NCBI GenBank assembly: GCA_016182905.1
Contig: JACPFR010000063.1
Span: 1-41,089, forward strand
Length of the DNA: 41,089 nt
DNA from: Elusimicrobiota bacterium
Lineage (GTDB): Bacteria > Elusimicrobiota > Elusimicrobia > UBA1565 > UBA9628
Direction: 5' to 3'
Below, in pieces: positions 11,762 through 30,884 of the stretch (its first letter is position 1; the number at the start of each line of letters is the position of its first letter). A program made the translations under genes and the position numbers. The notes under the pieces are model-generated. The model was not told the DNA's origin, ran no database searches, and saw nothing but the letters and a program-made list of their open reading frames with translations.

Positions 11762-14362
11762 TTAGCGCGACTCGAGGCTGCGGAACCAGCTCTGGATCGC
11801 GTCCACGTGCTGCTGCACCTCGTCCTGCGGGCCTTCGATGATCAGCAGGTAGTCGGTGCTGAGCCAGCCGCCGTACGACTTGAGCTCGTACTTCACGCCG
11901 GCCTCGTCGAGGTAGCGGCGCAGCTGGTTGACGACGCGGCCGCGGTACAGCGCGCCGACGGAGAAGGTCATCTTGGCCTTGACCATCGGAGACTGGCCGT
12001 CCGCGGCCAGCAGCCCGGTGTTCAGCGTGCCGCCGCCGAGGCTCTCGGCGCCGGTGAGCTTGACGGCGGACAGCGGGCCGGCCAGCCGCGACAGGAAGCT
12101 CGCGACGCCGCCGACGCGGCTCTGCGGGAGGTCGATGCCGTGGGCCTTCGCGGCCGCGCGGATCTCCGCCTCATGCAGGATCGTGCCGTCCTTGCCCGTC
12201 GCGTTGACGAGGACCTGGGCCATCGCGTCAGGGATGCGGGAGGCCTTGGCGAACATCGTCGGCATGACGAGGGACTCGGCCATCGCCGCGCCCTCCGCCT
12301 CGCCGAGCTTGGCGATCAGCGCCTTGCGGAGCTTCCACGCGAAGCCGCCCCACGCCTGGCCCTGGTCGTGCACCTCGTCGTACTCGTTGTATTGATAAGT
12401 ATTTTCGCCATGGCGAATGTAGTCGACGCCGCCGCGGCTTTGCTTGAGGAAGTGCTCGCCGATGATCGGGTTGTTCAGGCGGAACATCGAGAGGATGTCG
12501 CCCCAGCCCTCGGACAGGCCGCCGTTGACGATGCCGCCGGTGAAGTCGTCCCAGTAGTGGCCGTTCTCGTGCTCGGCGACGGTGTCGTACGCGGAGTTCA
12601 CGCAGTTCTTGCTCGACCGGAAGAAGTTGAGGGTCGGGCGGCCCGGCGTGTAGTAGGCGTTGCACTCGTCGTTGATGTTCGTGCGGACCGGGAGCTGCGT
12701 CTTGTCCATGCGCTCGTTGCTGAGGCCGCGCTCGCGAAGGAAGGCGAGGGAGAGGTTCACCTTGTGGAAGGCGTTGACCTGGGCCAAGGTGTTCTCGTCG
12801 GTGACGCCCGCCTGGGGGTTGAAGACGACCTTGTTGTCGCCGGGCTTGACCGCGACCTTGACCGACAGCGTCGCGCCCTGCTGGTTCTCGACGCGGACCC
12901 ACGGGCCGGACAAAGTCGCCGTCAGCTCGAGCCCCTCGGGGCCCACGGTCAGGTCGGCGGGGAGCTTGCCGTTCTTGTCGGTGACGTAGGACTTGCCGCC
13001 GATCTTGACCTCGAGGAAGGGGAGCGGGACCTCGGAGATCTCGGAGGTCGCCAGGATCGGGCCCCGGTCGACGGCCTTGCCGCTGACGGTGCCCGTCACG
13101 CCGCCCGCGGCCGGCTCGGAGGCGCTCTCCAGGCCCGTGCGGTTGTCCCACGCGAACACGAGGCCGCTGACGACGTCCACGGCCACCATGAACGGCAGGC
13201 CCTCGGCGACGTACAGCTTCACGTTGCGCCACTCGCCGCGAGAGTAGACGATCTTCTGCTCGTAGAACTCGAAGGCGTTGGCGACGTCGGAGGTCGGCAT
13301 GCCGGTGCGCTCGGCGATCTTGTCCATGATCTGGTCGTCGGTGAGCACCGTCTCGGTGTTGACGTCCAGCTGCGGGAAGATCTGCCCGGTCTGCGCGACG
13401 ATCGTCGGCTGGCCGTTCAGGGTCTTGATCGTGAAGGACAGGGCCGAGCCGTTGACGACGAGGCCGTTCTTGGTCTGCCGGAAGTACACGAAGAGCGTGT
13501 CGGCCTGCTCACCCTTGCCGGTGAACTTCTGGGCGTGGATGAGGCGCAGGTCGGCGCTCGACACGCCGTAGCGCGCCGGGTCGGCGTCGATCATCGCCTT
13601 GACGGCGTCGACGACGGCCGTACCGTTGGCCGGGTCGGCGGCGAGGACCTTGCGGCTCGTCTCGAAGATGCCGCCCACGTCGCGGGCGCCGGGAAGGCCG
13701 TACGCCTCGACGCGCGTGGTCGGCTCGCGGTCGGGGGAGGGGGTGGTCGGCTGCTCGTCGGTGACGGTGCCGTTGGGCAAGGTGATCGGCTTCTGCTCCT
13801 TGAGGCCCATGCGCGCGAAGATCGGCGCGGAGCGCTCGGCGGCGCCGTCGAAGGAGACGGAGGCGGCGGGGCGGCGGAGCAAGACGTCGAGGACGCGGCC
13901 GGCGAGGCTCTTCGCGACGGGGGCGGCGGCCTTCGCGGCGGGCGCCTGCGCGGCGGGGACGGACGCGGCGTATTCGGCGGCCTCGGCGGCGACGCCCGAG
14001 GCGGCGGCGCCGGGGGTGCGGACCACGATGGCCTTTGCGTTGTCGGGGGTCGCGGCGGCGGCCGTGACGGCGGTCAGGGCCGACGGAGCCTGAAGGGCGG
14101 CGGTCGGGACCACGGAGACGAGGGGCGCGGGCGTCGCGCTCGGCGCGGAGAGGGAGCCGTTGAGGCCGAGGGTCGCCGGGGAGCTGGTCAGGCTGCCGGC
14201 GCTCGGCAGGATGCTGCCTCCGAGGGCGGGCACGACGGGGACCCCGGCACTGGAGCCGGCGCCCACCTGCACGCGCATCTGCGCGGCGGCGGGCAGCGGG
14301 CCGGAGGCGAGGAAAAGGGAGAGGGCGAGGAACACGGGAGACAGGCGGGTTTCTTTCTTCAT
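11762..14362 (-). CDS. Secreted gluzincin metallopeptidase (M36/M4-like) with FTP propeptide
   Basis: An 866-residue protein. Signal peptide (to about residue 27); Ala/Pro/Ser/Val-rich tract (about 30-165); FDGAAERSA box at 171-179; FTP/PepSY-like propeptide region (about 235-415: RLIHAQKFTG, QTKNGLVVNGS, VAVDVVSGLVFAWDN); a beta-rich insert; then the catalytic domain. The zinc motif is HENGH (His598, Glu599, His602), and Glu618 in GGLSEGWGD is the likely third ligand; the EGWGD wording and later QAWGGFAW favour fungalysin M36 over thermolysin M4. The His-to-Glu spacing is shorter than in either family as I recall them. The last ~95 residues form an unassigned alpha/beta-looking domain. Starts at ATG 14362, 6 nt after TAGGAT. 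Probably activated by removal of the FTP part outside the cytoplasm. Confidence 0.87.
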   Translation of the reverse strand: MKKETRLSPVFLALSLFLASGPLPAAAQMRVQVGAGSSAGVPVVPALGGSILPSAGSLTSSPATLGLNGSLSAPSATPAPLVSVVPTAALQAPSALTAVTAAAATPDNAKAIVVRTPGAAASGVAAEAAEYAASVPAAQAPAAKAAAPVAKSLAGRVLDVLLRRPAASVSFDGAAERSAPIFARMGLKEQKPITLPNGTVTDEQPTTPSPDREPTTRVEAYGLPGARDVGGIFETSRKVLAADPANGTAVVDAVKAMIDADPARYGVSSADLRLIHAQKFTGKGEQADTLFVYFRQTKNGLVVNGSALSFTIKTLNGQPTIVAQTGQIFPQLDVNTETVLTDDQIMDKIAERTGMPTSDVANAFEFYEQKIVYSRGEWRNVKLYVAEGLPFMVAVDVVSGLVFAWDNRTGLESASEPAAGGVTGTVSGKAVDRGPILATSEISEVPLPFLEVKIGGKSYVTDKNGKLPADLTVGPEGLELTATLSGPWVRVENQQGATLSVKVAVKPGDNKVVFNPQAGVTDENTLAQVNAFHKVNLSLAFLRERGLSNERMDKTQLPVRTNINDECNAYYTPGRPTLNFFRSSKNCVNSAYDTVAEHENGHYWDDFTGGIVNGGLSEGWGDILSMFRLNNPIIGEHFLKQSRGGVDYIRHGENTYQYNEYDEVHDQGQAWGGFAWKLRKALIAKLGEAEGAAMAESLVMPTMFAKASRIPDAMAQVLVNATGKDGTILHEAEIRAAAKAHGIDLPQSRVGGVASFLSRLAGPLSAVKLTGAESLGGGTLNTGLLAADGQSPMVKAKMTFSVGALYRGRVVNQLRRYLDEAGVKYELKSYGGWLSTDYLLIIEGPQDEVQQHVDAIQSWFRSLESR

Positions 14363-14368
14363 GGGCGC

Positions 14369-14374
14369 ATCCTA
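14369..14374 (-). promoter_or_regulatory. Extended -10 of the gluzincin gene, leaderless spacing
   Basis: TGATAGGAT on the minus strand ends 6 nt before the ATG at 14362. It is nearly the same as the lptF box (TGATAGAAT). No Shine-Dalgarno is visible. Confidence 0.55.
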
Positions 14375-14484
14375 TCAACTCCCGGGATTCGGCCATGAGG
14401 GCCGATGGTCCTTGATGGGATGGGGGATAGGGCCCAGATTAATCCGGGACCTTCGGCACCCCGACCCGGCCGTGCACGATTTGA

Positions 14485-14490
14485 TATCAT
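14485..14490 (+). promoter_or_regulatory. Extended -10 upstream of ychF
   Basis: TGATATCAT (extended -10) ends 10 nt before the ATG at 14501, giving a leader of only a few bases. An alternative ATG at 14489 lies inside this box, which argues against it as the start. Confidence 0.45.
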
Positions 14491-14500
14491 GACGTCCCCC

Positions 14501-15571
14501 ATGGAAATAGGCATCGTCGGTCTCCCCAACGTCGGCAAGTCCACCATCTTCAACGCATTGACTTCCGGTAATGCGGCCGCCTCCAACTATCCGTTCACCA
14601 CCATCGAGCCCAACGTGGGCGTCGTCGGCGTGCCCGATCCGAGGCTCCAGCGCCTGACCGAGCTGGCCAAGCCCAAGAAGACGATCCCCGCCTCCTGCCG
14701 CTTCGTCGATATCGCCGGTCTCGTGAAAGGCGCCGCTTCGGGCGAAGGCCTGGGAAACAAGTTCTTGGCGAACATCCGCGAGGTCGACGCGATCCTTCAC
14801 ATGGTCCGTCTGTTCAAGGACCCGGACGTCATCCACACCATGGGCGGGGTCGATTTCAAGCGAGACATAGACGTCATCGAGACCGAGCTGATGCTCGCCG
14901 ACCTCGAGAGCATCTCGAAGCAGTACGACAAGGTCTCCGGCAAAGCCAAATCGGGCGATAAGGCCGCGAAGGAAGCGATGGTCGTGCTCGACGCCCTCAA
15001 GAGCGGCCTCGAGGCGGGCAAGCCCGCCCGCGCCCTCGGCCTCGATCCGAAGGTCCTCCAGGATTTCGCCTTGCTCACCGCCAAGCCCGTCCTTTATGTC
15101 GGCAACACCGATGAGAACCCCGATCCCTCGACGCTCGAGGAGTTCAAGGCCTTCACGAAGGCCCGCGGCTCCGAATCGGTGGTGATCTGCGGCAAGCTCG
15201 AGAGCGAGATCGCCCAGCTCTCAGGCGAGGACCGCGAGATGTTCATGAAGGAGCTCGGCATGAAGCAGAGCGGTCTCGAGACCGTGATCGTCGGCGCCTA
15301 CAAGACACTCGGCCTGTGCTCCTACTTCACCGTCGGCGTCGAGGAAGTCCGCGCCTGGACCATCCACGTAGGAGACAAGGCGCCGCGCGCCGCGGGCGTG
15401 ATCCACACCGACTTCGAGAAGGGCTTCATCAAGGCCGACATCTACGGCTACGCCGACATCGACAAGCTCGGCTCCGAAGCGGCCCTGAGAGAGAAGGGCC
15501 TGATCCGCTCCGAAGGCAAAGAGTACACGGTCAAAGACGGCGATGTCTGCCATTTCAAGTTCGCCAACTGA
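14501..15571 (+). CDS. ychF: Obg-family ATPase/GTPase YchF (OLA1)
   Basis: A 356-residue P-loop NTPase. Walker [10 protein letters not shown] is at residues 7-15, switch region [20 protein letters not shown] follows, and NTDE stands where GTPases have NKxD; the NxxE form is the YchF/OLA1 signature linked to ATP preference. A coiled-coil insert (about 125-190) and a C-terminal TGS-like domain ([20 protein letters not shown] to [10 protein letters not shown]) complete the normal architecture and length. The family binds ribosomes and acts in stress and translation control. I start at 14501 ([10 protein letters not shown]) for homology and promoter spacing; 14489 would add four residues. It overlaps rlmD by 29 bases in another frame, so the two are co-expressed. 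Confidence 0.95.
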
Positions 15572-16736
15572 AGCCTCGTTGCTTTGCCGTCACTTCGGCG
15601 CCTGCGGCGGCTGCTCCCTTCAGGACAAATCCTATGAGTCCCAGCTTGTCCTGAAGAAGGACAAAGTCCTCGCCGCCCTGTCGGGGATCGAAGGCCTTCC
15701 CGAGGCGTCCGTCCTGGGCGCCCCCGACATCTGGAACTACCGCAACAAGATGGAGTTCAGCTTCGGCGACGTCTATCCGCCCGTCGCGGGACAGTGGCTC
15801 AAGCTCGGCATGAAGCCCAAGGGACGCTGGTACGAGATCCTCGACCTTCAGGAGTGCCGTCTTCCCAGCCCCGAGGCGGCGAAGCTGCTCGCCTCTGTCC
15901 GCGCCTGGGCGGAGCGCGAGAAGGTTCCCCCGTACAATTCCCATAAAAAAGAAGGCGTTTTGCGTCATCTCGTCCTGCGCGAGGCCAAGAATCGTCCCGA
16001 GCGCATGGTGCTGCTCGTCACGACGGACGGGAAGATCCCCAAGCCTTCCTTTATAGAAGCGGTCCAGTCGGTCTACCCCGCGACGACAATCCTTCTCGGC
16101 TCCAACGCCAAGGCCTCTGATACCGCGATCTCGGACAGCCTCGAGACCTTGACGGGCGCGGGCTTTATCACCGAGACCTTGTACTTCCCCGACGGCGCCG
16201 TCGACTACCGCATCTCCCCGCACTCCTTCTTCCAGACCAACACCAAGGGCACCGAGGCGCTGTACGGCCTCCTTCGCTCCTGGACGCGCGAGCTTCCGGG
16301 AACGGGTACGGTGCTCGATCTCTACTGCGGCGGCGGCGGGATCGCGTTGTCGCTGGCGGGAGCCGCGCGCAAGGTCGTCGGCGTCGAGCTCAACCCCTCG
16401 GCCGTGGCCGACGCGAAGGCCAACGCGGAACGCAACGGGTTCAAGAACTGCGAGTTCTACTGCGCGGCCGTCGAGCTGCTCCTGCCCGCGCTCCTCGACC
16501 TGCGCCCGGAGGCCGTCGTCGTGGACCCGCCGCGCGCGGGCCTTCACGCCAAGGCCGCCGCGACCTTGCTCGAGATGGCGCCGCCCCTGATCTTCTACGT
16601 CTCCTGCAATCCCGAGTCCCTGGGCCGGGACCTCGGCCTGCTCAAGGAGAAATACGCCGCCGACCGGCTCGTCGTGGTCGACCTTTTCCCGCACACGGAC
16701 CACGTCGAAACCGTCGTCCGCCTCGTGCGTCGCTAG
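15543..16736 (+). CDS. rlmD: 23S rRNA (uracil-5)-methyltransferase RlmD/RumA-type (TrmA family)
   Basis: A 397-residue RNA m5U methyltransferase. The [4Fe-4S] cysteines are C15-x5-C21-x2-C24 (CRHFGACGGCSLQ) and Cys105 (QECRLPSP), characteristic of RumA/RlmD. The C-terminal Rossmann part has FFQTN, VLDLYCGGGGIALSLA, VVDPPRAGLH, nucleophile Cys355 (YVSCNPESL) and general base Glu389 (HVETV). The N-terminal TRAM domain of E. coli RlmD is absent, as in RlmCD-like shorter homologues, so the exact uridine (747 or 1939) is uncertain. The ATG at 15543 overlaps the end of ychF by 29 bases and is the only plausible start before the first cluster cysteine. A tRNA gene with its own promoter follows. Confidence 0.88.
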   Translation: MSAISSSPTEASLLCRHFGACGGCSLQDKSYESQLVLKKDKVLAALSGIEGLPEASVLGAPDIWNYRNKMEFSFGDVYPPVAGQWLKLGMKPKGRWYEILDLQECRLPSPEAAKLLASVRAWAEREKVPPYNSHKKEGVLRHLVLREAKNRPERMVLLVTTDGKIPKPSFIEAVQSVYPATTILLGSNAKASDTAISDSLETLTGAGFITETLYFPDGAVDYRISPHSFFQTNTKGTEALYGLLRSWTRELPGTGTVLDLYCGGGGIALSLAGAARKVVGVELNPSAVADAKANAERNGFKNCEFYCAAVELLLPALLDLRPEAVVVDPPRAGLHAKAAATLLEMAPPLIFYVSCNPESLGRDLGLLKEKYAADRLVVVDLFPHTDHVETVVRLVRR

Positions 16737-16757
16737 CCAGGCCGCCCGGCGATAAAC

Positions 16758-16763
16758 TATAAT
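16758..16763 (+). promoter_or_regulatory. Consensus -10 of the tRNA-Arg gene
   Basis: A perfect TATAAT. Transcription would start at about 16770-16771, exactly at the base of the long leader/trailer stem around the tRNA. No clear -35 is visible within the end of rlmD. Confidence 0.65.
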
Positions 16764-16770
16764 CACGCGT

Positions 16771-16875
16771 CGGGCCGTCGATTGCGCTCGTAACACAAAG
16801 GATAGTGTCCCGCCCTGCGAAGGCGGGTATCCAGGTTCGATTCCTGGCGAGCGCAATGGACGGCCCGGTTTTTTT
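16771..16875 (+). terminator. Leader-trailer extended stem of pre-tRNA-Arg ending in T7
   Basis: Leader CGGGCCGTC (16771-16779) is the exact complement of trailer GACGGCCCG (16859-16867). After one G-G mismatch (16780/16858), ATT (16781-16783) pairs with AAT (16855-16857) and runs directly into the 7-bp acceptor stem. T7 follows at 16869-16875. The whole transcript is thus one hairpin capped by the tRNA cloverleaf, and the trailer arm plus T7 should act as terminator. The T-run abuts the stop codon of the convergent gene at 16876. Confidence 0.8.
16784..16855 (+). tRNA. tRNA-Arg (anticodon GCG)
   Basis: Cloverleaf read by eye: acceptor GCGCTCG/CGAGCGC, T8-A9, D-stem ACAC/GTGT with loop AAAGGATA (A14, G18-G19, A21 and A20 typical of arginine tRNAs), base 26 C, anticodon stem CCGCC/GGCGG with loop CTGCGAA, variable loop GTAT, T-arm CCAGG-TTCGATT-CCTGG, discriminator A. 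The anticodon at 34-36 is GCG, reading CGC (and CGU by wobble). CCA is not encoded. Most bacteria read CGN with a tRNA-Arg(ACG) edited to inosine by TadA, so a genomic GCG is less common; it suits a genome where CGC is heavily used. Confidence 0.88.
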
Positions 16876-18903
16876 CTAGAACGCGAGCGCGGGCAGAAGA
16901 CTCGCGTGCCGGTCGGTCCAGGCCGCCGCGTCCGCCGGCCCCTTGCCGAGCTCCCGCCAGCCTTTCTTCTCCACGAGTCTGCCGATCGCCGCGGCGTCGC
17001 GGCTGACCGCCACCCACACCGACGGGACGCCGCCGTCCCCGCCGGAGAGCTGCCGCTTCGCCGCGGCGGAGAGCCCGAGGTCGCGCGCGGCCGCGCCGAG
17101 CACCGGGCGCAGATCGAGATAGCGGTTGGAGATATGGCAGAGGATCACGCCGCCGGGCTTCAGGCGGCGCAGATAGGAGGCGAAAGCCTCCTCGGTCAGA
17201 AGATGGATCGGGATCGAGCCGCTGCTGAAGGCGTCGAGGATGAGCGCGTCGTAGGACGCGCCGTCGGCCTTCTCGAGGGAGAGACGCCCGTCCCCCACCA
17301 CGACGCGGACCGCGGACTCGCTGCGCCGCAGATGCGTGAACCAGCGTTCGGCGATGGCGGCCACGTCGGGGTCGAGCTCGTAGAAATCCATGCTCATGCC
17401 GCGGCGGCCGTACGCCGCGAGGCTGCCCGCGCCGAGGCCGACGACCCCGACCGAGGTCCAGGGGCCGAGCGTCGCCGCGGCCTCGCCGAGAGGCGAGGCG
17501 AACCCGTAGTACGACAACGGCTCGTCCTGGCGGACGGGATCGAGGGACTGAGCGCCGTGCTCGGTGTTGCCGTGGAACAGGCTGCGCACGCCGCCTTCGT
17601 CGCGGACGGAGTACACGCCGTAGAAGTTGCGCAGGCTGTGCACCGTGCCGGACCGGCTGGCGGCCGAGGTGACCCCCGCGGCGACGGCGACGGCGAGGGC
17701 GGCGAGGGCGGCCGCGGCCTTGCGGTGCGGGCGGATCTGCTCCCAGTCGCGGACGAGGATCGCGGCGGCGGCGACCGCGCCCACGGCGGCCCAGTCGAGG
17801 GCCAGCGCGCCGACGGCCCGGCCAAGGCAGGGCACGGCCAGCCCGACGAGGACGCTGCCGAGCAGGCCGCCGGCGGCGATCCAGCTGTAGTACTCAGCCA
17901 TCGCCCGCTCCGACGCGGGGCGGGCCGTCGCAAGCGACCGGTGGAAGATCATGCTCAGCGCGAAGAGCGCGAAGAGGACGTAGCCGAATTTCCCGAGGTC
18001 GAGCAGGCGGCTGAGGATCTGCGCGGGCGTCGAATCCAGGGAGAACCAGAAGGCGAGCCCCGCCGGGATGAGGATCAGCGCGAGGAAGACGGCGAACACC
18101 GGGAGCAAAGTCCGGTTCAGCTTCTCGGGGTACCAGGGCACGCGCTTGAAGTTCAGCACGAAGGTGAGCAGATAGGTCGCCAAGGGCGCGGTCCAGAGCA
18201 GCGGGACCGCGGCGAAGTCCATGCTCAGGAGGTTCGTCGCGGCGAGCAGGGCCGCGCACGGCGCGGCGCTGAGCAGCAGCCACAGCGCGCGCTCGCGCCG
18301 CGACGGGGCGCTCCCGCCGGCGGCCGGCTCGACGAGCGCGCCGCTCCCGCGGGGGGCGCAGGAGAGGCACAACGCCGCATACGCCGCGTAGAGCCCGCGC
18401 CACAGCCAGCCCTGCGCCGGGAGGGACAGGAGCGGTTCGATGGCGAGGGGATAGGCGAGCAGCGCGCAGGCGGCGCCGGCGTTAGACGCCGCGTAGAGGA
18501 AATAGCCGTCGGACCGCTCCGCGCACGACGACCGCATCAGCCAGCTTTGCGCGACGACGACCGTCGTGGACAGGACGAAGAACGGCGCCCCGACCGAGAA
18601 GACCAGGGACCAAAGGAGCCCGGCGAACGGGCCGGACGCCGCGAGCGGCGCGGGGAGGGTCAGCGGCAGGAAAAAGAACGGGAGCACCAGCGCGACGGCG
18701 TGCGCCCGCGGGTGGAGCCGCGCCCGGCGGCCGTAGAGGTAAGAGAGGAGCAGGAGCCCCTGGAAGAACATCATGGCGCCGGTCCAGACGTAGGCGCTGC
18801 CGCCGAAGCGCGGCAGCAGCAGCTTGGCGGCGGCCAGCTCCAGGCAGAAGGCGAGGAAGGAGCCGAGGAACGCGAGGGCCTGAAAACGGGTTCGTTGAGG
18901 CAA
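16876..18903 (-). CDS. Fused MFS-type membrane protein / spermidine synthase-like protein
   Basis: A 675-residue protein. The N-terminal ~440 residues are polytopic and open like other fused MFS/spermidine synthases (LLLPRFGGSAYVWTGAMMFFQGLLLLSYLYG). The C-terminal ~200 residues are a PABS-type Rossmann domain: GVVGLGAGSLAAYG, YELDPDVAAIA, VVVGDGRLSLEK, LILDAFSSGSIPIHLLTEEAF. The last matches the aminopropyltransferase loop in position, but substrate residues were not verified, so polyamine synthesis is a family-level guess. Start choice: TTG at 18903, because TACACT on the minus strand (18911-18916) lies 7 nt before it. A TTG at 18927 would add eight residues upstream of the promoter box. 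It is monocistronic, divergent from the alpha-2-macroglobulin gene, and ends against the tRNA terminator. Confidence 0.82.
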   Translation of the reverse strand: MPQRTRFQALAFLGSFLAFCLELAAAKLLLPRFGGSAYVWTGAMMFFQGLLLLSYLYGRRARLHPRAHAVALVLPFFFLPLTLPAPLAASGPFAGLLWSLVFSVGAPFFVLSTTVVVAQSWLMRSSCAERSDGYFLYAASNAGAACALLAYPLAIEPLLSLPAQGWLWRGLYAAYAALCLSCAPRGSGALVEPAAGGSAPSRRERALWLLLSAAPCAALLAATNLLSMDFAAVPLLWTAPLATYLLTFVLNFKRVPWYPEKLNRTLLPVFAVFLALILIPAGLAFWFSLDSTPAQILSRLLDLGKFGYVLFALFALSMIFHRSLATARPASERAMAEYYSWIAAGGLLGSVLVGLAVPCLGRAVGALALDWAAVGAVAAAAILVRDWEQIRPHRKAAAALAALAVAVAAGVTSAASRSGTVHSLRNFYGVYSVRDEGGVRSLFHGNTEHGAQSLDPVRQDEPLSYYGFASPLGEAAATLGPWTSVGVVGLGAGSLAAYGRRGMSMDFYELDPDVAAIAERWFTHLRRSESAVRVVVGDGRLSLEKADGASYDALILDAFSSGSIPIHLLTEEAFASYLRRLKPGGVILCHISNRYLDLRPVLGAAARDLGLSAAAKRQLSGGDGGVPSVWVAVSRDAAAIGRLVEKKGWRELGKGPADAAAWTDRHASLLPALAF

Positions 18904-18910
18904 CCCCGAC

Positions 18911-18916
18911 AGTGTA
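18911..18916 (-). promoter_or_regulatory. -10 of the MFS/spermidine synthase gene, leaderless spacing
   Basis: TACACT on the minus strand ends 7 nt before a TTG at 18903. The same hexamer serves as -10 in both kinase-region promoters (33438-33504). Confidence 0.45.
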
Positions 18917-18947
18917 TAAATTCTCAAACTTACGGGCGCGGGCGGGC

Positions 18948-18976
18948 TTGCGCTGGCGCCGCAAGGGGGGTACAGT
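18948..18976 (+). promoter_or_regulatory. Promoter of the alpha-2-macroglobulin gene
   Basis: TTGCGC (18948-18953), a 17-bp spacer, then TACAGT (18971-18976). Transcription would start near 18983, leaving a leader of about 58 nt before the ATG at 19041. This gene is one of the few here with a conventional leader. Confidence 0.5.
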
Positions 18977-19040
18977 CTGCAAGGAACATTGCGGCCGCGC
19001 CGTTGTCGAAATAGGATCCTCCGTCCTCGTTGAGAGCGCC

Positions 19041-25025: not shown

Positions 25026-25034
25026 GCGCGGCCG

Positions 25035-25052
25035 ACTGTTTCCGGAAACAGT
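25035..25052. repeat. 18-bp perfect palindrome, copy 2
   Basis: Identical to 358-375, and read in the direction of the upstream gene the flanks also agree (G before, TC after). It begins 9 nt after the alpha-2-macroglobulin stop. It forms a 7-bp RNA stem with a CCGG loop, without a T-run. Confidence 0.75.
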
Positions 25053-25054
25053 TC

Positions 25055-25086
25055 AGGCCGGACTCGCGCCGGTGCGAGCCCGGCCT
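25055..25086. terminator. GC hairpin between convergent genes
   Basis: AGGCCGG/CCGGCCT (7 bp), one A-C mismatch, CTCGC/GCGAG (5 bp) and loop GCCGGT. It fills the gap between the convergent alpha-2-macroglobulin and MFS genes and overlaps the MFS stop codon. There is no T-run, so it may pause polymerase or protect 3' ends rather than act as a classical intrinsic terminator. Confidence 0.5.
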
Positions 25087-26272
25087 AGACCTTGAGGTGC
25101 TCTTCCTCGACCGAGGAGGCCCAGGCGCAGGCGAGGATCGCGGCGCCCAGCGCCGCGAAGGTCCAGGGAAGGGAGATCTTCGTGAGCAGCCCGACGACGG
25201 GCAGCACGAGGATGCCCATGAGCTGGCGGCCCATGCCCACGGTGGACAGGACCGTCGCGCGCTGGGCGCTTCCGATGTGCTTGTTCATGTAGTTCGAGAT
25301 GAGCACCGAGCGCGACATGCCGAAGGCGGGGATCAGGACGAACAGCGCGCACGCGGCCCACGGGTTCGTCGCGAAGGGCAAGGCGAGGAACGCGAGCCCC
25401 GGGATGACCGCGCTCCAGGCCAGGTAGCGGCGCGTCCCGCCGAATAGGCTCTCGAGCCGTTCGTGGCCGCTCATGACGGCGATCTGGGACAAGGTCAGAG
25501 CCGCGGTGACGAAGCCGTAGACGCCGACCCCGACGCCGAGCTCCTTGAGGCGCGGCTGGAACAGCCAGATCGTCATGAAGGACAGCATCGAGATCGTGAT
25601 CGAGTCGAACGCCAGGGCGCGCAGGGGCTTGTGCGAGGCGAAGTAGCGCACGCCGCGCGTCAGGACCTCGCGGTAGCCGGGCTTGGCGCCTTCTTCTCCC
25701 GTGGGGGGCTCTTGAAAGGAGAGGGACACGAACAGGGCGAGGGAGAAGGGGATGAGCATCGCGAGCAGCGGGGATTGCAGGCCCCAGCGCGCGGCCATCA
25801 GGCCGCCGAGCGGCGCGGCGAAGGCGATCGCGCCGATATCGAACGACGAGAGCAGCGAGAGCGCCCGCTTCGAGGAGCCCTCGTCGCCCGCGGCCTTGAG
25901 GCTGTCATAGACCATGGCCTCGTCCGCGCCGGAGGCGAGCGCGGCCGACGCGGCCCAGATGAACTCGGCGAGGAGGTAGCGCGGCAGGCCCTTGCCCGTG
26001 GCGTAGATCGCCGTCGCGATCAGCAGGCAGGCGCTCGCGCAGACGACCGAGGTCTTGCGGCCGAACTTGTCGGCGACGGCGCCGGTCGGCACCTCGAGCA
26101 GGAAGATCCAGAGGAAGAACCAGGCCTGGAGCAGGAGCATCTGCGGCAAGGTCAGCCCGCCCCAGTCGGTGAAGAAGGGCACGAGCACCCCGGCGAAGAA
26201 GTGCATGTGCGTCAGGGAGCGCCACAGGTACATGCGGCGCACGTTGCCGCGCCAAGCTTCGCGGCTCGTCAC
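25085..26272 (-). CDS. Major facilitator superfamily transporter
   Basis: A 395-residue protein with about twelve hydrophobic segments. The loop between TM2 and TM3 has VADKFGRKTSVV, the MFS motif A (G-x3-D-x2-G-R-x2). It follows the DHA-like fold of drug or metabolite exporters; the substrate cannot be assigned. The start is GTG at 26272, overlapping the trmO stop by four bases (GTGA), so it is translationally coupled as the last gene of a four-gene operon. A conserved-looking LWRSLTHMHFFAGVLVPFFTDWGGLTLPQ opening is seen in MFS proteins that select on a soluble N-terminus. It ends convergently with the alpha-2-macroglobulin gene. Confidence 0.85.
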   Translation of the reverse strand: MTSREAWRGNVRRMYLWRSLTHMHFFAGVLVPFFTDWGGLTLPQMLLLQAWFFLWIFLLEVPTGAVADKFGRKTSVVCASACLLIATAIYATGKGLPRYLLAEFIWAASAALASGADEAMVYDSLKAAGDEGSSKRALSLLSSFDIGAIAFAAPLGGLMAARWGLQSPLLAMLIPFSLALFVSLSFQEPPTGEEGAKPGYREVLTRGVRYFASHKPLRALAFDSITISMLSFMTIWLFQPRLKELGVGVGVYGFVTAALTLSQIAVMSGHERLESLFGGTRRYLAWSAVIPGLAFLALPFATNPWAACALFVLIPAFGMSRSVLISNYMNKHIGSAQRATVLSTVGMGRQLMGILVLPVVGLLTKISLPWTFAALGAAILACAWASSVEEEHLKV

Positions 26273-27024
26273 GCCAGCTTGACCTTGGCGGGGGAGACGC
26301 GCCGTTCCTTCTTGTGCATCTTCGTGCCGGTCACCAGCCGCAGGACGGTGGCGACGCCGTTTTGAACGGAAAAATGGCAGTCGAAATCGTGAAGGAAAAA
26401 CCCAAGCTCCAACCCCTCCTTCGTTTGCGCTTTGTCGCGGGGGTTCCTCAAGTCTTGACTCAGTATGTCCGTCAGAACAGCACTCAATCCGTTGACGTTA
26501 AGCCGTTTCTCCGCCGCCTTGATGTCGTTCTTCGCGGCGGCGGACATTTCAACCCTCAACACCGGGAACGGGGCGTCTTTCACCCAGCCCGGCGACGCGT
26601 GCGGCACCGAGTCCCACTCCGGGATGTACGGCTTGACGTCGAGTATCGGCGTCCCGTCCACGAGGTCTATCCCCGCGAGATGCAAAGTCGCGCCCTCGAT
26701 CCGCACGAGCCGCGCCAGCGACAGCCCGATCGGGCTCGGCCGGTGCGGCGACCTCGACGCGAACAGCCCGACGCTCTCGCCCTTCAGGCGCGGCGGATGG
26801 ATCTTCGGCCGCACCGTCTTGTTCGTGTTGAGGTGGAAGTAGGAGATCAGCCAGACGTGGCTGAACCGCTCGAGGCCGGCGAGGGAGTGCTCGGGGAGGA
26901 ACTCGCGCGCGATGGTCAAGGTCGCGGTCGCGCCGGGCACGAGGAGCGGCTGCCGCGGCGTGCCGAACTTCTCTCGGAAGCAGGAACGCAGCTTGCCGAT
27001 GACGCGCAGGGGCTGGGCGGGCAT
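26269..27024 (-). CDS. trmO: tRNA t6A37 N6-methyltransferase TrmO (TsaA/YaeB family)
   Basis: A 251-residue protein with both signature blocks of the family: SRSPHRPSPIGLSLARL (SAM-binding) and DLVDGTPILDVKPYIPEWD. The N-terminal core (IGKLRSCFREKFGTPRQP...LERFSHVWLISYFHLN) also fits. TrmO uses SAM to methylate N6-threonylcarbamoyladenosine-37 in threonine tRNAs. The C-terminal ~100 residues (MSAAAKNDIK to the end) match the tail found in proteobacterial YaeB-type proteins. The ATG at 27024 is chosen over longer in-frame starts because homology begins at residue 6 and those starts would overlap the small membrane protein gene. It lies 8 bases after that gene and overlaps the MFS gene by 4. 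Confidence 0.93.
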   Translation of the reverse strand: MPAQPLRVIGKLRSCFREKFGTPRQPLLVPGATATLTIAREFLPEHSLAGLERFSHVWLISYFHLNTNKTVRPKIHPPRLKGESVGLFASRSPHRPSPIGLSLARLVRIEGATLHLAGIDLVDGTPILDVKPYIPEWDSVPHASPGWVKDAPFPVLRVEMSAAAKNDIKAAEKRLNVNGLSAVLTDILSQDLRNPRDKAQTKEGLELGFFLHDFDCHFSVQNGVATVLRLVTGTKMHKKERRVSPAKVKLA

Positions 27025-27032
27025 GGGGCGGC

Positions 27033-27356
27033 TTACGAATCGACCTGTTCGAGGAGCTCGGCCTTGTCGTTGAAGACGAGGAAGGACGCCTTCTCGCCCG
27101 CGGCGACGGCGGCTTCCTTCCCGGCGTACGCGGCCTCCACGGCCTCGGGCTGCTTCTCGAAGTCGCCGAGCCAGCGCAGAAGGCCGCCGTGGTCGCGGCG
27201 GGCGGCGCGGAACCACTTCGGCTCGATGGGGCGCTCGGCGTACAGCGCGGCGACCTCCGGCGGGACGACGAGCGGGCTGACCTTCTTCAGCCAGCGCACG
27301 ACGAGCCAGGCGAAGAACAGCGGGATGACGACCCAGTAGATGAGGGGAAAAAACAT
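27033..27356 (-). CDS. Small membrane-anchored protein of unknown function
   Basis: A 107-residue protein. One N-terminal transmembrane helix (MFFPLIYWVVIPLFFAWLVVRWL) is followed by KK and a soluble, helical, charged tail of about 80 residues with several Trp/Arg (PKWFRAARRDHGGLLRWLGD) and acidic/Ala-rich helices. The positive residues after the helix predict a cytoplasmic tail. I recognise no family. It is the second gene of the zinc protease - this - trmO - MFS operon (12 bases after the protease stop, 8 bases before trmO), so its expression is tied to the membrane protease. It could be a small accessory or anchor; this is a guess from position only. Confidence 0.7.
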   Translation of the reverse strand: MFFPLIYWVVIPLFFAWLVVRWLKKVSPLVVPPEVAALYAERPIEPKWFRAARRDHGGLLRWLGDFEKQPEAVEAAYAGKEAAVAAGEKASFLVFNDKAELLEQVDS

Positions 27357-27368
27357 GGCGTTATCGGC

Positions 27369-28940
27369 TCAGCGAGAGGCGGCGAGGGGGGCGGGCTCGG
27401 GGAGCCCCGCTTCCTTGGCCGCGGCCTTCGCCTTGTCCATGTACATTTTAGCCGATGCGGGGGTGTGAGCGCGAGCCGCGAGCACCTGATAGATGTGCAC
27501 GCGGAAGGCGGGCCAGCGCGCGCGCTGCTCGGCGAGGAAGGCGTCGAAGTAGGGGTTCGGGACGGAAACGTTCTTCTCGTACATCGCGGCGACGGACTTG
27601 AGGAAGCCGTCGAGGTCCGCGGCGGCGTCGGGGACCATCCACTGGTCGTGGCCGTTGTTGCGCGCGGCGGGGTCGCGCTCGAGCTCGGCCAAGCGGAACA
27701 GCATCTCCTGGAAGAAGGCCTCCTGCTCGGCCTCGAAGGTGAGCTTGAAGTAGCCGGGCGTCCACGGCGGCCGGCGTCCCTGGACGGCGTGGGTGAGCTC
27801 GTGCAGGACGGTGGAGCTCATCTCCCGGATCAACTGCCGCTGAAGCGCGGGGTCCTTGAGGAACTGCTCGACGGTCCAGCCCCGGCCGGTGACCTCGCCC
27901 TCGTTGAGATAGACCCCGTCGAAGAGATTCTCGTGCTGGCCGTAGGAATCGTCCTGGCGGGAGATGAAGAACGGGGGCAGGCGCAGGACGCCGCCGCGGT
28001 CGCGCAGCTTGTCCAGGACCTCGCGGCCGACGGGATTGGGGGCGAGGACCTTGAAGACCTCGTCCTCGACGGCGCCGCCCGAGATCCAGCGCGCCCGGGT
28101 CTGCTTCGCGGCGGGATCGTGCCTTTCGGTGTAGGCCTTGACGCGCTCCACGACGGGGCCGGTCGCCTGATAGGGGACGACGGCGGCGCCGAGGCCGAGG
28201 ACGACGCCGAGGGCGACGACGGCGAGCTTGGCGCGGCGGCTGGGCGGGGGCTTGGCGGCGGTCTGCGGCGCCCGCTTCAGCTTGCGCCAGACGGCGAGGA
28301 CGAGGGCGACGGGAAGGACGACCGCGAGCATGAGCGCGTCGGCGGCGACGGCGGCGTAGGCGAGCTTCAGCGCCGGCGCCGCGCCCCACAGCACGGGGAC
28401 GGCGACGGCCGCCGTCGTCGTGAGGAACATCGCCTTGCCGAAGGCGTTCTGAAGGGGGTTCTTGTTCCGTCCGGCCTTGTACCGCTGCAGCAAAGTGCGG
28501 CGGGGCTGCGCGGCGGCCTCGGGCTGGACGGGCGGCTCGACGGAGGCCGCGGCCGAGCGCGTGACCGAGCCGTCGAAGATCGCGCCGGTCCCGGGCGCGA
28601 TCTCGGGCGAGGCGGCGGAGCGCAGGGTCTCGAGCGGCGTCGCGGTCCGCGCCGGCGCGAGCGCGGGGAGCGTGGGGACGGCCGAGACGGGCCGGGCCGG
28701 GAGCGGGGCCGCGGCCGACGGGACCGGAGACGGGCCGAGGGACGCGAAGGCGGCCGGCGTCAGCGAGGCGCCGAGCGCGGGCGCGAGGAGGCCGGCGGCG
28801 GGCGCGACGAGGCCCGCGGGGACCGGGACGGGCGCCGCGGGGGCCGGCAGCGAGGCCCGGCCGAGCGCGGTCTGGGCCTGGGCGGGGACGGAGCCCAGGC
28901 CGAGCGCGAGCGCCAGGATCGACGACAGCAGCCGCTTCAT
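27369..28940 (-). CDS. Membrane-associated zinc metalloprotease-like protein with FDG-box N-terminus
   Basis: A 523-residue protein. Signal peptide MKRLLSSILALALGLGSVPAQA; Pro/Ala/Val-rich tract (about 25-118); box IFDGSVTRSAA at 121-131; hydrophobic helices (about 166-218 and 238-258); then a soluble domain with HELTHAVQ (His380, Glu381, His384), an HExxH zinc site, followed by acidic residues at 403-411 (FEAEQEAFF) that could supply the third ligand. The catalytic domain looks like a minigluzincin, but I cannot place the family. The ATG at 28940 is supported by TATCCT 6 nt upstream and by the signal peptide starting there. First gene of a four-gene operon. The N-terminus resembles those of the gluzincin at 11762 and the glycogen synthase at 29010. 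Confidence 0.72.
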   Translation of the reverse strand: MKRLLSSILALALGLGSVPAQAQTALGRASLPAPAAPVPVPAGLVAPAAGLLAPALGASLTPAAFASLGPSPVPSAAAPLPARPVSAVPTLPALAPARTATPLETLRSAASPEIAPGTGAIFDGSVTRSAAASVEPPVQPEAAAQPRRTLLQRYKAGRNKNPLQNAFGKAMFLTTTAAVAVPVLWGAAPALKLAYAAVAADALMLAVVLPVALVLAVWRKLKRAPQTAAKPPPSRRAKLAVVALGVVLGLGAAVVPYQATGPVVERVKAYTERHDPAAKQTRARWISGGAVEDEVFKVLAPNPVGREVLDKLRDRGGVLRLPPFFISRQDDSYGQHENLFDGVYLNEGEVTGRGWTVEQFLKDPALQRQLIREMSSTVLHELTHAVQGRRPPWTPGYFKLTFEAEQEAFFQEMLFRLAELERDPAARNNGHDQWMVPDAAADLDGFLKSVAAMYEKNVSVPNPYFDAFLAEQRARWPAFRVHIYQVLAARAHTPASAKMYMDKAKAAAKEAGLPEPAPLAASR

Positions 28941-28946
28941 ACAGGG

Positions 28947-28952
28947 AGGATA
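28947..28952 (-). promoter_or_regulatory. -10 of the zinc protease operon, leaderless spacing
   Basis: TATCCT on the minus strand ends 6 nt before the ATG at 28940. The intervening CCCTGT contains no Shine-Dalgarno. Confidence 0.5.
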
Positions 28953-29009
28953 GCGGCTTGCGGCCGTGAAGAGACGGTGCAAGGGGGCCGCGGAGGCCCG
29001 GGAGAAGGC

Positions 29010-30884
29010 CTAGCGCTTTTCGGGACTTTCGGCCCGCAACAGGCGCCGGAACAGCGCCTCGTACACGTCGAGGGAGACTTCCCAGGACGAGTCCTTGCTC
29101 ATCGCGGCGCGGCGCGCCAGCGGAAAGGCCCGCGGATGATGATAGCCGGAGACGGCGTCGGCGATCGCGCGCGACAGGGAGATCGAGGCGACGGCGCGGA
29201 TGATCAGGCCGTCCCCGTGGATCGGGTCGTCGCGCAGGTCCCGGACGGTGTCGGCCAGGCCGCCGACCATCGTGACGATCGGCAGGGCGCCGTAGCGCTG
29301 GGCGATGAGCTGCGACAGGCCGCAGGGCTCGAAACGCGAGGGCATGAGCAGGAAGTCGGCCGCGGCGAAGCCCATGCGCACGAACTTCTCGTCGAACGGG
29401 TACGACGCGACCTTCCCGGGGAACGCGAGCACGAGCGCGGCGCGCAGGGCCTCGGTCTGGGCGTCGCCGGCGCCCATGATCAGGAGCTGGCCGCCGAGGC
29501 GCACGACGTCGCGCGCGGAGTCGAAGATCATGTCGATGCCCTTCTGATGCGCCAGGCGCGAGGCGACGAGGAAGAGCGGGGAGCCGGGTTCGACGTCGAG
29601 CCCGAGGTTCGTCTGGATCGCGGCCTTGTTCGCGGCCTTGCCCTCGGCGACGCCGTCGATGTCGTAGTGGTGGGCGACGTCGGGGTCGGTCGCGGGGTCG
29701 TACAGCACGGGGTCGATGCCGTTGATGATGCCGTGCACGCCGTCGGGGCGGGCGCGCAGGGGGCCTTCGAGGCCCATGCCGAACAGGATGTTCTCGAGGA
29801 TCTCCTTCGCGTAAGTGGGGCTGACGGTGGTCACCGCGTCGGCGTTCACGATGCCGGCCTTGAGATAGTTGGCGCCGCCGTGGTGCTCGAGGGCCGCGTC
29901 GTCGAAGCCGAGCTTGCCCGCCGTCGCGAGCGCGAAGGCGCCCTGGAAGGCGATGTTGTGGATGGTCAAAGTGGTCTTCGTGCCCGCGAAGAACGCGTCG
30001 TTCGCATAGACGGTCCTCAGGAAGGCGGGGATCAGGGCCGCGTGCCAGTCGTGCGCGGAGATGACGTCGGGCTTGATGTCGAGGGACTTCATCACCTCGA
30101 GCGCCGCGCGCGCGTAGAAGCCGAAGCGCTCGTCGGCGTCGTCGACGCCGGCCGCGTCGTAGGCCGAGAGGCCGAGCGCCGCGTGCTTGGCGGCGTACGG
30201 CCCGCCTTCGCGCTCGTAGAACTCGGGATGCTCGAGCAGGACGACGCGCACTCCGTCGCGCCGGCCGACGAGGACGTTCGCCGTCTCGACGCGGCCGCCG
30301 ATCGGCACCGACACCGCGCCCGCCTTCCGCAGCTCGACGCCGGCCGTCTTGAGATCGCGGTACTTGGGCAGGACCATGGTCACGTCATGGCCGCGCGCGG
30401 CGAGGCCGCGGGACAGGGCGTCGACGACGTCGGCGAGGCCGCCGGTCTTGATGAAGGGCACCGCCTCGGAGCCGGCGATGAGGACCTTGAGCGCGCCGTC
30501 GAACATCGCGTCGGAGGCGCCCTTCTGATGTTCGGCGGAAACGGGCGCCGGCGCCGCGGCGGCGGGCGCGGAGGGCTTGTCCGGCGTCGCGGGGACGGCG
30601 GTCTTGAGAGCGGTCAGGGCGGCGGGGACGGGTTGAGCGGCGATCGCAACGGCGGCCGACACGGCGGGAACGACGGAGGGAGCGGGAGTGACGGCGCTCA
30701 GCGCGGAAGGCGACGGCAGCGAGGCATTCAGGGGCGAAGGAACATCGCCGATCGACGGCGCCGATAGGGATGAAGCGCCGGTGTTTCCAAGATGGATCCG
30801 GGGAACGACGGAGACGGCGTTGCCCCGCACCTGGGCGAAGGAAGGGACCGGAACGAGCAGGAGGGCGACCAACAGCCTTTTCAT
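29010..30884 (-). CDS. glgA: Glycogen/starch synthase (GT5) with signal peptide and Ala/Pro-rich N-terminus
   Basis: A 624-residue protein. Residues ~133-624 are a complete GT5 synthase: KVLIAGSEAVPFIKTGGLADVV (ADP-glucose-binding KTGGL at 146-150), HDWHAALIP, NIAFQG, VSPTYAKEI, LVASRLAHQKG and PSRFEPCGLSQLIAQRYG with the catalytic Glu. GlgA extends alpha-1,4-glucan from ADP-glucose. Residues 1-17 read as a signal peptide (MKRLLVALLLVPVPSFAQ); residues ~20-125 are Ser/Ala/Pro/Val-rich, ending in the MFDGA box at 127-131. A normal GlgA is about 480 residues and cytoplasmic, so export or membrane-proximal placement is unexpected. Start: ATG 30884, because the upstream ATG (30893) overlaps the TATAAT box. 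It is monocistronic; no other glg gene is near. Confidence 0.88.
   Translation of the reverse strand: MKRLLVALLLVPVPSFAQVRGNAVSVVPRIHLGNTGASSLSAPSIGDVPSPLNASLPSPSALSAVTPAPSVVPAVSAAVAIAAQPVPAALTALKTAVPATPDKPSAPAAAAPAPVSAEHQKGASDAMFDGALKVLIAGSEAVPFIKTGGLADVVDALSRGLAARGHDVTMVLPKYRDLKTAGVELRKAGAVSVPIGGRVETANVLVGRRDGVRVVLLEHPEFYEREGGPYAAKHAALGLSAYDAAGVDDADERFGFYARAALEVMKSLDIKPDVISAHDWHAALIPAFLRTVYANDAFFAGTKTTLTIHNIAFQGAFALATAGKLGFDDAALEHHGGANYLKAGIVNADAVTTVSPTYAKEILENILFGMGLEGPLRARPDGVHGIINGIDPVLYDPATDPDVAHHYDIDGVAEGKAANKAAIQTNLGLDVEPGSPLFLVASRLAHQKGIDMIFDSARDVVRLGGQLLIMGAGDAQTEALRAALVLAFPGKVASYPFDEKFVRMGFAAADFLLMPSRFEPCGLSQLIAQRYGALPIVTMVGGLADTVRDLRDDPIHGDGLIIRAVASISLSRAIADAVSGYHHPRAFPLARRAAMSKDSSWEVSLDVYEALFRRLLRAESPEKR

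What the first reader, a model, noticed from the sequence alone, without database searches (positions are those of the whole stretch)
13844..30503. Shared export architecture: signal peptide + Ala/Pro-rich tract + 'FDG' box on three unrelated enzymes
The gluzincin (11762-14362), the membrane zinc protease (27369-28940) and the glycogen synthase (29010-30884) each begin with a signal peptide. Each continues with 95-140 residues rich in Ala, Pro, Val and Ser, and ends that tract with FDG: FDGAAERSA (residue 171), FDGSVTRSA (122) and FDGAL (128). The first two also share RSA at the same offset. The enzyme domains are unrelated, so the N-terminus looks like a movable module for sorting, processing or surface display. 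I know of no described system with this signature. All three genes also have leaderless-type promoters.
Basis: partly seen in the sequence, partly recalled or inferred. Interest (0 to 1): 0.7.

Follow-up and report, generated by a model that had tools for sequence, protein, structure and literature searches.

The report
Export leader shared by unrelated enzymes
In a group of uncultured bacteria (Elusimicrobiota), more than forty unrelated proteins begin with the same export tag, and enzymes that normally need the cell's interior, including ATP-driven ones, carry it and have lost almost all their cysteines, as if they work outside the cytoplasm.

Summary
The host is an Elusimicrobiota bacterium. 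Its genome has 46 HMM matches (42 at E<=0.001), and one more found later, to one N-terminal module: Sec-type signal peptide usually ending A-Q, roughly 90-150 residues rich in Ala/Pro/Ser/Leu/Val, and often a box. Strict FDG occurs in 24 of 45 leaders (0.29 expected in shuffles), variants in 9. The F, D, G columns are unchanged in 17 of 17 orthologue pairs while the tract drifts (dN/dS 0.36). Similar modules sit on unrelated domains. Cargo includes proteases, nucleases, glycogen enzymes and normally cytosolic ATP-dependent machines (Lon, FtsH, MoxR, ABC, PPK2) plus an NTT-like carrier. Cargo is purged of cysteine: 16 in 32,756 residues (0.05%) against 0.72% in other genes, with no other residue much changed. 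Full-length moduled glycogen synthase domains have exactly one Cys in 16 of 16 genomes; unmoduled ones 4-10 in 14 of 14. I read it as an export-and-sorting leader whose cargo works outside the reducing cytoplasm. What reads the box and what powers ATP-dependent cargo there is unknown; all evidence is computational.

The parts
14282..14362 (-). signal peptide of the M36-like gluzincin (residues 1-27, before Q28)
   Evidence: n-region K/R, hydrophobic core, AAA|Q; cleavage inferred
13853..14281 (-). Ala/Pro/Ser/Val/Leu tract of the gluzincin (residues 28-170)
   Evidence: HMM match 13826-14362
13844..13852 (-). FDG box of the gluzincin (residues 171-173)
   Evidence: kept in the G003 and G006 orthologues
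11765..13843 (-). cargo: fungalysin-like (M36) metallopeptidase, weak Pfam match, 2 Cys 20 residues apart
   Evidence: (E 0.00036, below the Pfam cut-off)
28875..28940 (-). signal peptide of the membrane zinc protease (residues 1-22 from the ATG at 28940)
   Evidence: cleavage inferred
28578..28874 (-). tract of the membrane zinc protease (residues 23-121)
28569..28577 (-). FDG box of the membrane zinc protease (residues 122-124)
   Evidence: FDG kept in L058, L061, L062
27372..28568 (-). cargo: membrane protein with HELTH motif, no Pfam (E 0.001) or NCBIfam (E 0.01) match, 0 Cys
30834..30884 (-). signal peptide of the glycogen synthase (residues 1-17 from the Met at 30884)
   Evidence: cleavage inferred
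30504..30833 (-). tract of the glycogen synthase (residues 18-127)
30495..30503 (-). FDG box of the glycogen synthase (residues 128-130)
   Evidence: FDG kept in orthologues of two families
29013..30494 (-). cargo: ADP-glucose-type glycogen synthase (GlgA, GT5), tested catalytic motifs present, one Cys

Best explanation
The module is an N-terminal export-and-sorting leader. Step 1 (sequence evidence): a Sec-type signal peptide takes the chain out of the cytoplasm and is probably cut by signal peptidase I before the usual glutamine. Step 2 (inferred): the flexible, little-charged tract serves as spacer or second targeting segment. Step 3 (conservation shown, role inferred): the FDG box at the end of the tract is read by a partner, either a sorting receptor or a processing protease, in an envelope or internal compartment. 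Step 4 (cysteine loss shown, location inferred): the cargo then works, nearly cysteine-free, in a thiol-oxidising space outside the cytoplasm. The leader has come to sit on dozens of unrelated genes in one order of Elusimicrobiota, including second copies of cytosolic housekeeping enzymes.
For: One homologous module on 46 HMM matches with unrelated domains. A-Q within residues 13-48 of 40 of 45. Tract dN/dS 0.36; box columns F, D, G each 17 of 17 unchanged, the 24 other columns from -12 to +14 11-16 of 17. Tract is no transmembrane helix (best-segment score below 2 in 0 of 45). Cargo Cys 0.05% against 0.72% in 137 genes without signal peptide and 0.38% in 37 other signal-peptide genes; no other residue differs by more than 0.23 log2 units from the first set; 35 of 45 cargo have no Cys. 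Within one family: 16 of 16 full-length moduled glycogen synthase domains have exactly one Cys, 14 of 14 unmoduled have 4-10; around the active serine, Lon of the moduled type has 0 in 6 of 6, other Lon 2-3 in 11 of 11 (leader read in 5 of those 6). Low Cys repeated in G003, G006, G018. Module shuffling.
Against: Of 45 leaders 21 lack strict FDG and 12 have no recognisable box, so the box cannot be essential for all. Lon, FtsH, MoxR, ABC and PPK2 cargo have the nucleotide motifs that I tested and would need ATP outside the cytoplasm. Polytopic cargo mostly keep positive flanks before the first membrane helix (11 of 13, though FtsH only 4 to 3 and ABC 6 to 5), which by the positive-inside rule fits a cytoplasmic flank. 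Other exported genes here are also poor in Cys, 18 of 37 with none. In the same genus G017 had no match with either model, and in the order 15 of 29 genomes had none with A4. No machinery was identified. No proteomic or localisation data.
Confidence: 0.65

Rival explanations
1. Ordinary periplasmic or extracellular secretion: the tract is only a disordered spacer, FDG is a leftover helix cap from the ancestral module, and the cargo works in an ordinary periplasm, some of it without its usual cofactors or as inactive relatives.
For: Signal peptides look like others of the genome; low Cys is also usual in other exported genes here, 18 of 37 with none; many cargo are proteases, nucleases and amylases that suit secretion.
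Against: F, D and G are the only columns unchanged in 17 of 17 pairs and even the FSG variant is kept in G003, G006 and G018; Lon, FtsH, MoxR, ABC and PPK2 keep the ATP motifs tested; cargo has less Cys than the other exported genes (rank test 5e-4).
Confidence: 0.17
2. The cargo is delivered into another cell (partner, host or prey), as with the leaders of exported parasite effectors; cysteine is avoided because the chain crosses oxidising spaces.
For: Architecture of signal peptide, disordered stretch, short box and diverse cargo resembles PEXEL and RxLR leaders (recalled); ATP would be available in a recipient cytosol.
Against: Cargo includes multi-spanning membrane proteins, poor substrates for secretion through an outer membrane; no secretion system was sought or linked to the module; the named relatives are MAGs whose titles name no host, one of them from groundwater.
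Confidence: 0.09
3. The N-terminus is an uncleaved membrane tether and the cargo stays on the cytoplasmic side.
For: FtsH-like cargo in three genomes has two hydrophobic segments before the AAA domain, as unmoduled FtsH does, so module and AAA lie on one side (by eye); net positive flanks before the first helix in 11 of 13 polytopic cargo; tested ATP motifs present.
Against: A cytoplasmic location gives no reason for a 15-fold lower cysteine content or for the frequent A-Q site; positive residues precede the hydrophobic core, which favours N-in, C-out insertion; the tract is unlikely to form a returning helix.
Confidence: 0.06
4. The module is mainly a gene-level element: a mobile promoter-plus-leader segment that spreads by 5' fusion, with no sorting role for the box.
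For: Similar modules on unrelated domains; a second signal peptide follows the module in the Bat-like fusion, kept in G006.
Against: The module is under purifying selection with an invariant box and cargo is poor in cysteine.
Confidence: 0.03

Closest known systems
Chromatophore transit peptide (crTP) of Paulinella
   Same: A long conserved N-terminal leader, bipartite, with secretory-type signals in its first part, shared by many imported proteins (passages of PMC12176269 seen).
   Different: Eukaryotic host and endosymbiont-derived organelle; about 200 residues with conserved secondary structure; here a bacterium, a low-complexity tract and a three-residue box; sequence relation was not tested.
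PEXEL and RxLR export leaders (Plasmodium, oomycetes; recalled)
   Same: Signal peptide, disordered stretch, short linear box, then diverse cargo; expanded in one lineage.
   Different: Eukaryotic pathogens; different motif near the signal peptide; secreted effector cargo rather than Lon, FtsH or ABC transporters.
PEP-CTERM/exosortase, LPXTG/sortase, type 9 secretion sorting domains (recalled)
   Same: Lineage-expanded sorting tags on unrelated bacterial proteins.
   Different: Those tags are C-terminal; here the tag is N-terminal, and no matching tag model was listed for the 19 proteins scanned with NCBIfam (one table cut at 25 rows).
NTP/NDP exchange transporters (TIGR00769, TLC PF03219)
   Same: One cargo protein (C31:49091) matches TIGR00769 (E 2.4e-7), PF03219 (21.4 bits with neighbours, cut-off 21) and a solved ADP,ATP carrier 9j3n (E 4e-4).
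   Different: Far below the TIGR00769 cut-off (30 against 387 bits), and also a plain MFS match; bears the module and an FSG box; substrate unknown.

Membership tests
Sec signal peptide (signal peptidase I) | positive n-region, hydrophobic core, small residues at -3 and -1 | tested here: met
   A-Q in residues 13-48 of 40 of 45, small residue at -3 in 36 of those 40; n-region and core judged by eye and a simple rule, no SignalP available
Bacterial lipoprotein signal | lipobox cysteine at the cleavage site | tested here: not met
   Q follows the Ala in 40 of 45; between cut and box 1 Cys in 5,115 residues, at residue 130 of one protein
Tat signal peptide | twin-arginine SRRxFLK motif | not tested
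   no script run; none noticed by eye
Chromatophore transit peptide (crTP) | sequence homology to crTP | not tested
   only architecture compared, from passages of PMC12176269
Chromatophore transit peptide (crTP) | import into an endosymbiont-derived organelle | not testable with these tools
   uncultured organism known from assemblies
PEP-CTERM and other curated sorting tags (NCBIfam, Pfam) | match to a curated tag or leader model | tested here: not met
   No match in the module region of the three window proteins. For the others only the listed rows were read; no leader model among them. NCBIfam was run on 19 proteins only
NTP/NDP exchange transporter (for cargo C31:49091) | score over the curated family cut-off | tested here: inconclusive
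   PF03219 just over (21.4 with neighbours, cut-off 21), TIGR00769 far under (30.1, cut-off 387.2)
GlgA, ADP-glucose glycogen synthase (window cargo) | score over cut-off and catalytic motifs | tested here: met
   TIGR02095 448 bits, cut-off 328 (the narrower GlgA equivalog models are below their cut-offs); KTGGLADV and FEPCGLSQ present

The most novel reading that the evidence does not exclude
These bacteria maintain a nucleotide-containing compartment outside the reducing cytoplasm, an internal or envelope organelle, with its own ATP-dependent proteases (Lon, FtsH, AAA), MoxR-Bat system, ABC exporter, nucleotide carrier, polyphosphate kinase and glycogen enzymes. The SP-tract-FDG module is the bipartite targeting leader of that compartment: a bacterial counterpart of a plastid or chromatophore transit peptide.
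Probability: 0.25. Interest if true: 0.97.

Novelty: categorically new. Interest (0 to 1): 0.87.

Why it matters
An N-terminal leader that carries a whole set of normally cytosolic, ATP-dependent enzymes out of a bacterial cytoplasm would break a basic rule of bacterial cell organisation, and would give a prokaryotic case in which the origin of organelle targeting signals can be studied. Even the cautious version is useful: a lineage-specific sorting code with dozens of cargo and a three-residue box, for which a receptor or protease should exist, plus a cysteine-content test that separates exported from cytosolic copies of the same enzyme without any experiment.

Tried and rejected
Chance or composition: rejected (FDG in 24 of 45 against 0.29 in shuffles; GDF, DFG, FGD, GFD, DGF and YDG 0 each, FDA 1, FEG 2, FSG 2, FTG 3). 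Circularity of the HMM: a model cut before the box, run over 1,081 frames of contigs C9, C2 and C19, gave 9 hits at E<=0.01: 5 with FDG, one FTG, three without. One of the three (C2:4368-6386, +) is a module protein that the A3 search had missed, so 46 is a lower bound. In one search, 6 of 11 printed rows were set aside by eye because no such tract lies between the signal peptide and FDG.

Alternative starts inside the gene (leader not translated): rejected; the frames read run open from leader to cargo, tract dN/dS is 0.36; a Met directly before FDG occurs in 3 of 24 boxes.

Tract as second membrane helix (hairpin anchor): not supported (recalled hydrophobicity scale, which also missed helices in polytopic cargo, so helix counts after the box were not taken from it).

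AlphaFold2 models of the membrane zinc protease (3 sequences, mean pLDDT 41.9) and the glycogen synthase (5 sequences, 37.8) were too poor to use; no fold search was run. The solved-structure search for the membrane zinc protease gave one row, E 0.53. The single scan of genome contigs gave 6 loci, 5 of them Elusimicrobiota. Papers: ten searches showed in their listings no description of such a module in Elusimicrobiota, which is weak evidence, as most subscription journals are not held. Passages were seen in PMC12176269, PMC11495043 and PMC12421883 (abstract included); other papers were seen as listings only.

Known faults of my counts: for three proteins without FDG (C10, C44:104426, C27:8465) the script placed the box too far downstream; corrected, cargo is 16 Cys in 32,930 residues instead of 32,756. 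Three of the 45 proteins (C30:13475, C27:1719, C27:8465) are cut short downstream by a contig or stretch end.
Full report
WHAT IS IN THE WINDOW. The three proteins are as described. The gluzincin (14362-11762, -), the membrane zinc protease (28940-27369, -) and the glycogen synthase (30884-29010, -) each start with a signal peptide, run through a long Ala/Pro/Ser/Val/Leu tract and reach FDG at residues 171, 122 and 128. The window is contig C63 of a 3.98 Mb, 63-contig genome. The nearest named relatives are Elusimicrobiota MAGs, among them JACPOW010000037.1 (a groundwater isolate by its title) and the complete genome CP096137.1.

A FAMILY, NOT A TRIO. A DNA pattern for FDG plus a downstream basic residue gave 6 matches: two window genes, two more proteins of the same build, and two unrelated places. 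Scanning three whole contigs (C9, C2, C19, about 367 kb) for signal peptide plus tract plus FDG raised the set to eight; 6 of its 11 printed rows were set aside by eye. An HMM of these eight (A2) gave 22 matches in the genome, 14 of them new; 7 of those 14 have strict FDG at the end of the tract, the others a variant, no box, or (C3) probably no module. An HMM of 19 (A3) gave 46 matches up to E 10, 42 of them at E<=0.001. I read all 46: each shows a hydrophobic start and a tract; one (C23) is cut by the contig end within the leader, and the two weakest have E above 5. A further one (C2:4368-6386) turned up later, so the count is a lower bound. Of the 45 leaders with a full leader, 24 have strict FDG, against 0.29 expected after shuffling (best shuffle 2). 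One of the 24 (C31:36219, LLLDFDGVLAG) may be a chance HAD-like motif. Nine have a variant at about the same place (FSG, FEG twice, FTG, LTG three times, LDG, LFEN) and 12 none that I recognise. A model cut off before the box gave 9 hits in C9, C2 and C19: 5 FDG, one FTG, three without. A basic residue at +6 occurs in 11 of 24 boxes, an acidic one in none, so the shared 'RSA' is the tail of a loose preference.

CONSERVATION. In 19 orthologue pairs with G003 (cargo domains about 80-96% identical) the tract has dN/dS 0.36, the signal peptide 0.49, a seven-residue box segment 0.21 and the cargo 0.23; the F, D and G columns (or the variant letters) are unchanged in 17 of 17 pairs with a box, the other columns from -12 to +14 in 11 to 16 of 17. 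The FSG of the carrier-like protein is kept in G003, G006 and G018. FDG is kept at the same junction in glycogen synthases of a second family of the order (L014, L022, L023), though L018-L021 of that and a third family have the leader without strict FDG. The downstream zinc protease keeps FDG in L058, L061 and L062, the gluzincin in G003 and G006. A variant can also decay: the LTG of C10 reads LTR in G006.

THE MODULE HAS MOVED. In this genome the leaders of C10 (HAD-like) and C33 (prolyl oligopeptidase) are 59% identical over 71 residues, and those of Lon and its neighbouring AAA protein 61% over 72, while the cargo regions of each pair do not align at E 1e-5. In G006 the leader on the orthologue of the C4:35861 cargo (72% identical) resembles the leader of the window's gluzincin (64%) and does not match that of C4:35861. 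These are three cases; most leaders whose cargo orthologue was held pair with the same cargo between genomes.

DISTRIBUTION. With A3, 9 of 198 genomes of the phylum match, own genome included: six of the genus, two more of the family, one more of the class; at most 19 candidates were scored per genome, so counts there are lower bounds. With A4, which includes leaders from other families, 14 of 29 genomes of the order match: 7 of 17 in family f1, 7 of 8 in f2, 0 of 4 in f3. Within the genus G017 matched neither model. CP096137.1 has 31 matches and the Methylococcaceae control none; 100 genomes of that control's phylum, itself included, gave 0. From 33 loci L251-L283 my script read 28 leaders (own-genome copies included, one probably a wrong frame); 17 have FDG.

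CARGO. Pfam was run on 42 of the 43 module proteins outside the window, all but the truncated one, and on the window proteins. Named cargo (E 1e-5): Lon, FtsH (AAA plus M41), another AAA protein, MoxR, a 3,220-residue VWA/TPR/DUF58 (Bat-like) protein directly upstream of MoxR, PPK2, ATP-grasp, a double ABC exporter, three MFS-type proteins, two CAAX proteases (one with trypsin and PDZ), M48 (two), M16, M1, M28, M50 with S8, S8 with GH77 and GDE, S9, PLD (two), PD-(D/E)XK, GH13, PspA/IM30, LOG-like, haem peroxidase; the rest have no Pfam match. The Walker and active-site patterns that I tried are mostly present in Lon, FtsH, MoxR, PPK2, both ABC domains and glycogen synthase, some secondary patterns not; in the second AAA protein the Walker A pattern was not found, and my ATP-grasp patterns were too crude to judge. 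The genome also has another Lon, three other FtsH-type proteins and another glycogen synthase; the Lon at C51, the glycogen synthase at C9 and the FtsH copies were read and start without the module. One cargo protein is NTT-like: TIGR00769 E 2.4e-7 but far under its cut-off, PF03219 at its cut-off and the only match in the genome, and a solved ADP,ATP carrier at E 4e-4.

CYSTEINE. Cargo after the box contains 16 Cys in 32,756 residues (0.05%; 32,930 with three box positions corrected); 35 of 45 have none. Other genes in the held stretches have 0.72% (137 without signal peptide, 15 with no Cys) and 0.38% (37 with, 18 with no Cys). No other amino acid differs from the first set by more than 0.23 log2 units, against -3.88 for Cys (rank test 1e-17 against genes without, 5e-4 against genes with signal peptide). 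Genes and signal peptides were called by simple rules. Counting orthologues over 50% identical, the content is as low in G003 (4 in 13,156), G006 (9 in 12,246) and G018 (0 in 1,985). Within one enzyme family it is cleanest: 16 of 16 moduled glycogen synthases with a full-length domain, from 16 genomes, have exactly one Cys, in FEPCGL, while 14 of 14 without a tract have 4 to 10; the seventeenth moduled one (L024) is broken by frameshifts and its 4 are out of frame; two of the 16 (L013, L017) show only the end of the leader. In 298-360 residues around the active serine, Lon of the moduled type has no Cys in 6 of 6 and other Lon 2 or 3 in 11 of 11; the leader was read in 5 of the 6, and the sixth (L231, leader not held) has a Cys outside the counted stretch. 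Exported proteins are known to differ in cysteine use: in mycobacteria about 64% are predicted to have even numbers (abstract of PMC12421883). Near-total absence in ATP-dependent machines is what surprises.

A TOPOLOGY PUZZLE. In the FtsH-type cargo of this genome, G003 and G006, two hydrophobic segments lie between module and AAA domain, as in the unmoduled copies, so module and AAA are on the same side of the membrane (read by eye; the scripts found only the second). Polytopic cargo have a net positive stretch before the first helix in 11 of 13, often by a small margin. Together with ATP motifs this looks cytosolic; together with signal peptide and cysteine content it looks extracytosolic. 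Both fit if the cargo ends in a compartment that has nucleotides and is not the reducing cytoplasm. A second signal peptide directly after the module in the Bat-like fusion, kept in G006, would also make sense if a second translocation follows the first. This is inference.

LIMITS. All evidence is computational, from genome assemblies of uncultured organisms. Signal peptides were judged by rule and eye. No receptor, protease or compartment is identified. The novelty label rests on the cargo and its cysteine content, not on a demonstrated mechanism.

Noticed in passing
window 14362, 28940, 30884; contig C9 genes: TANNNT about 6 bases before ATG at the three genes and at 20 of 46 assigned module starts; the same spacing peaks at ATGs of contig C9, suggesting widespread leaderless transcripts in this genome.
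   Followed up: partly
L163:357-10016 and L161:3915-5408 (contig C42): A 3,220-residue single protein combines VWA, TPR and DUF58 regions (Bat-like) with a second signal peptide after the module; a moduled MoxR gene follows it directly.
   Followed up: partly
L157:286-8349 (contig C26): A 2,688-residue protein joins an S8 protease, HEAT repeats, GH77 and a debranching-enzyme domain behind one leader.
   Followed up: no
L055:12225-15620 (contig C19): An M50 plus S8 protease fusion has a similar linker (GKGMPDQ...DRSDPDQ) twice after its FDG box.
   Followed up: no
L062 / L024 (CP096137.1): The moduled glycogen synthase is split over three frames in this complete genome, by sequencing error or real decay.
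   Followed up: no
window 30955-33426 (-): Next to the module genes lies a TPR-Ser/Thr kinase with a hydrophobic N-terminus but without such a tract or FDG box.
   Followed up: no
L138:3688-8289 (contig C27): A moduled 1,534-residue protein has a second signal-peptide-like segment after its leader and a Gly/Ser/Trp-rich C-terminus.
   Followed up: no
L050:4368-6386 (+, contig C2): A further module protein with an MFS-like membrane domain and no FDG, missed by the A3 search.
   Followed up: partly
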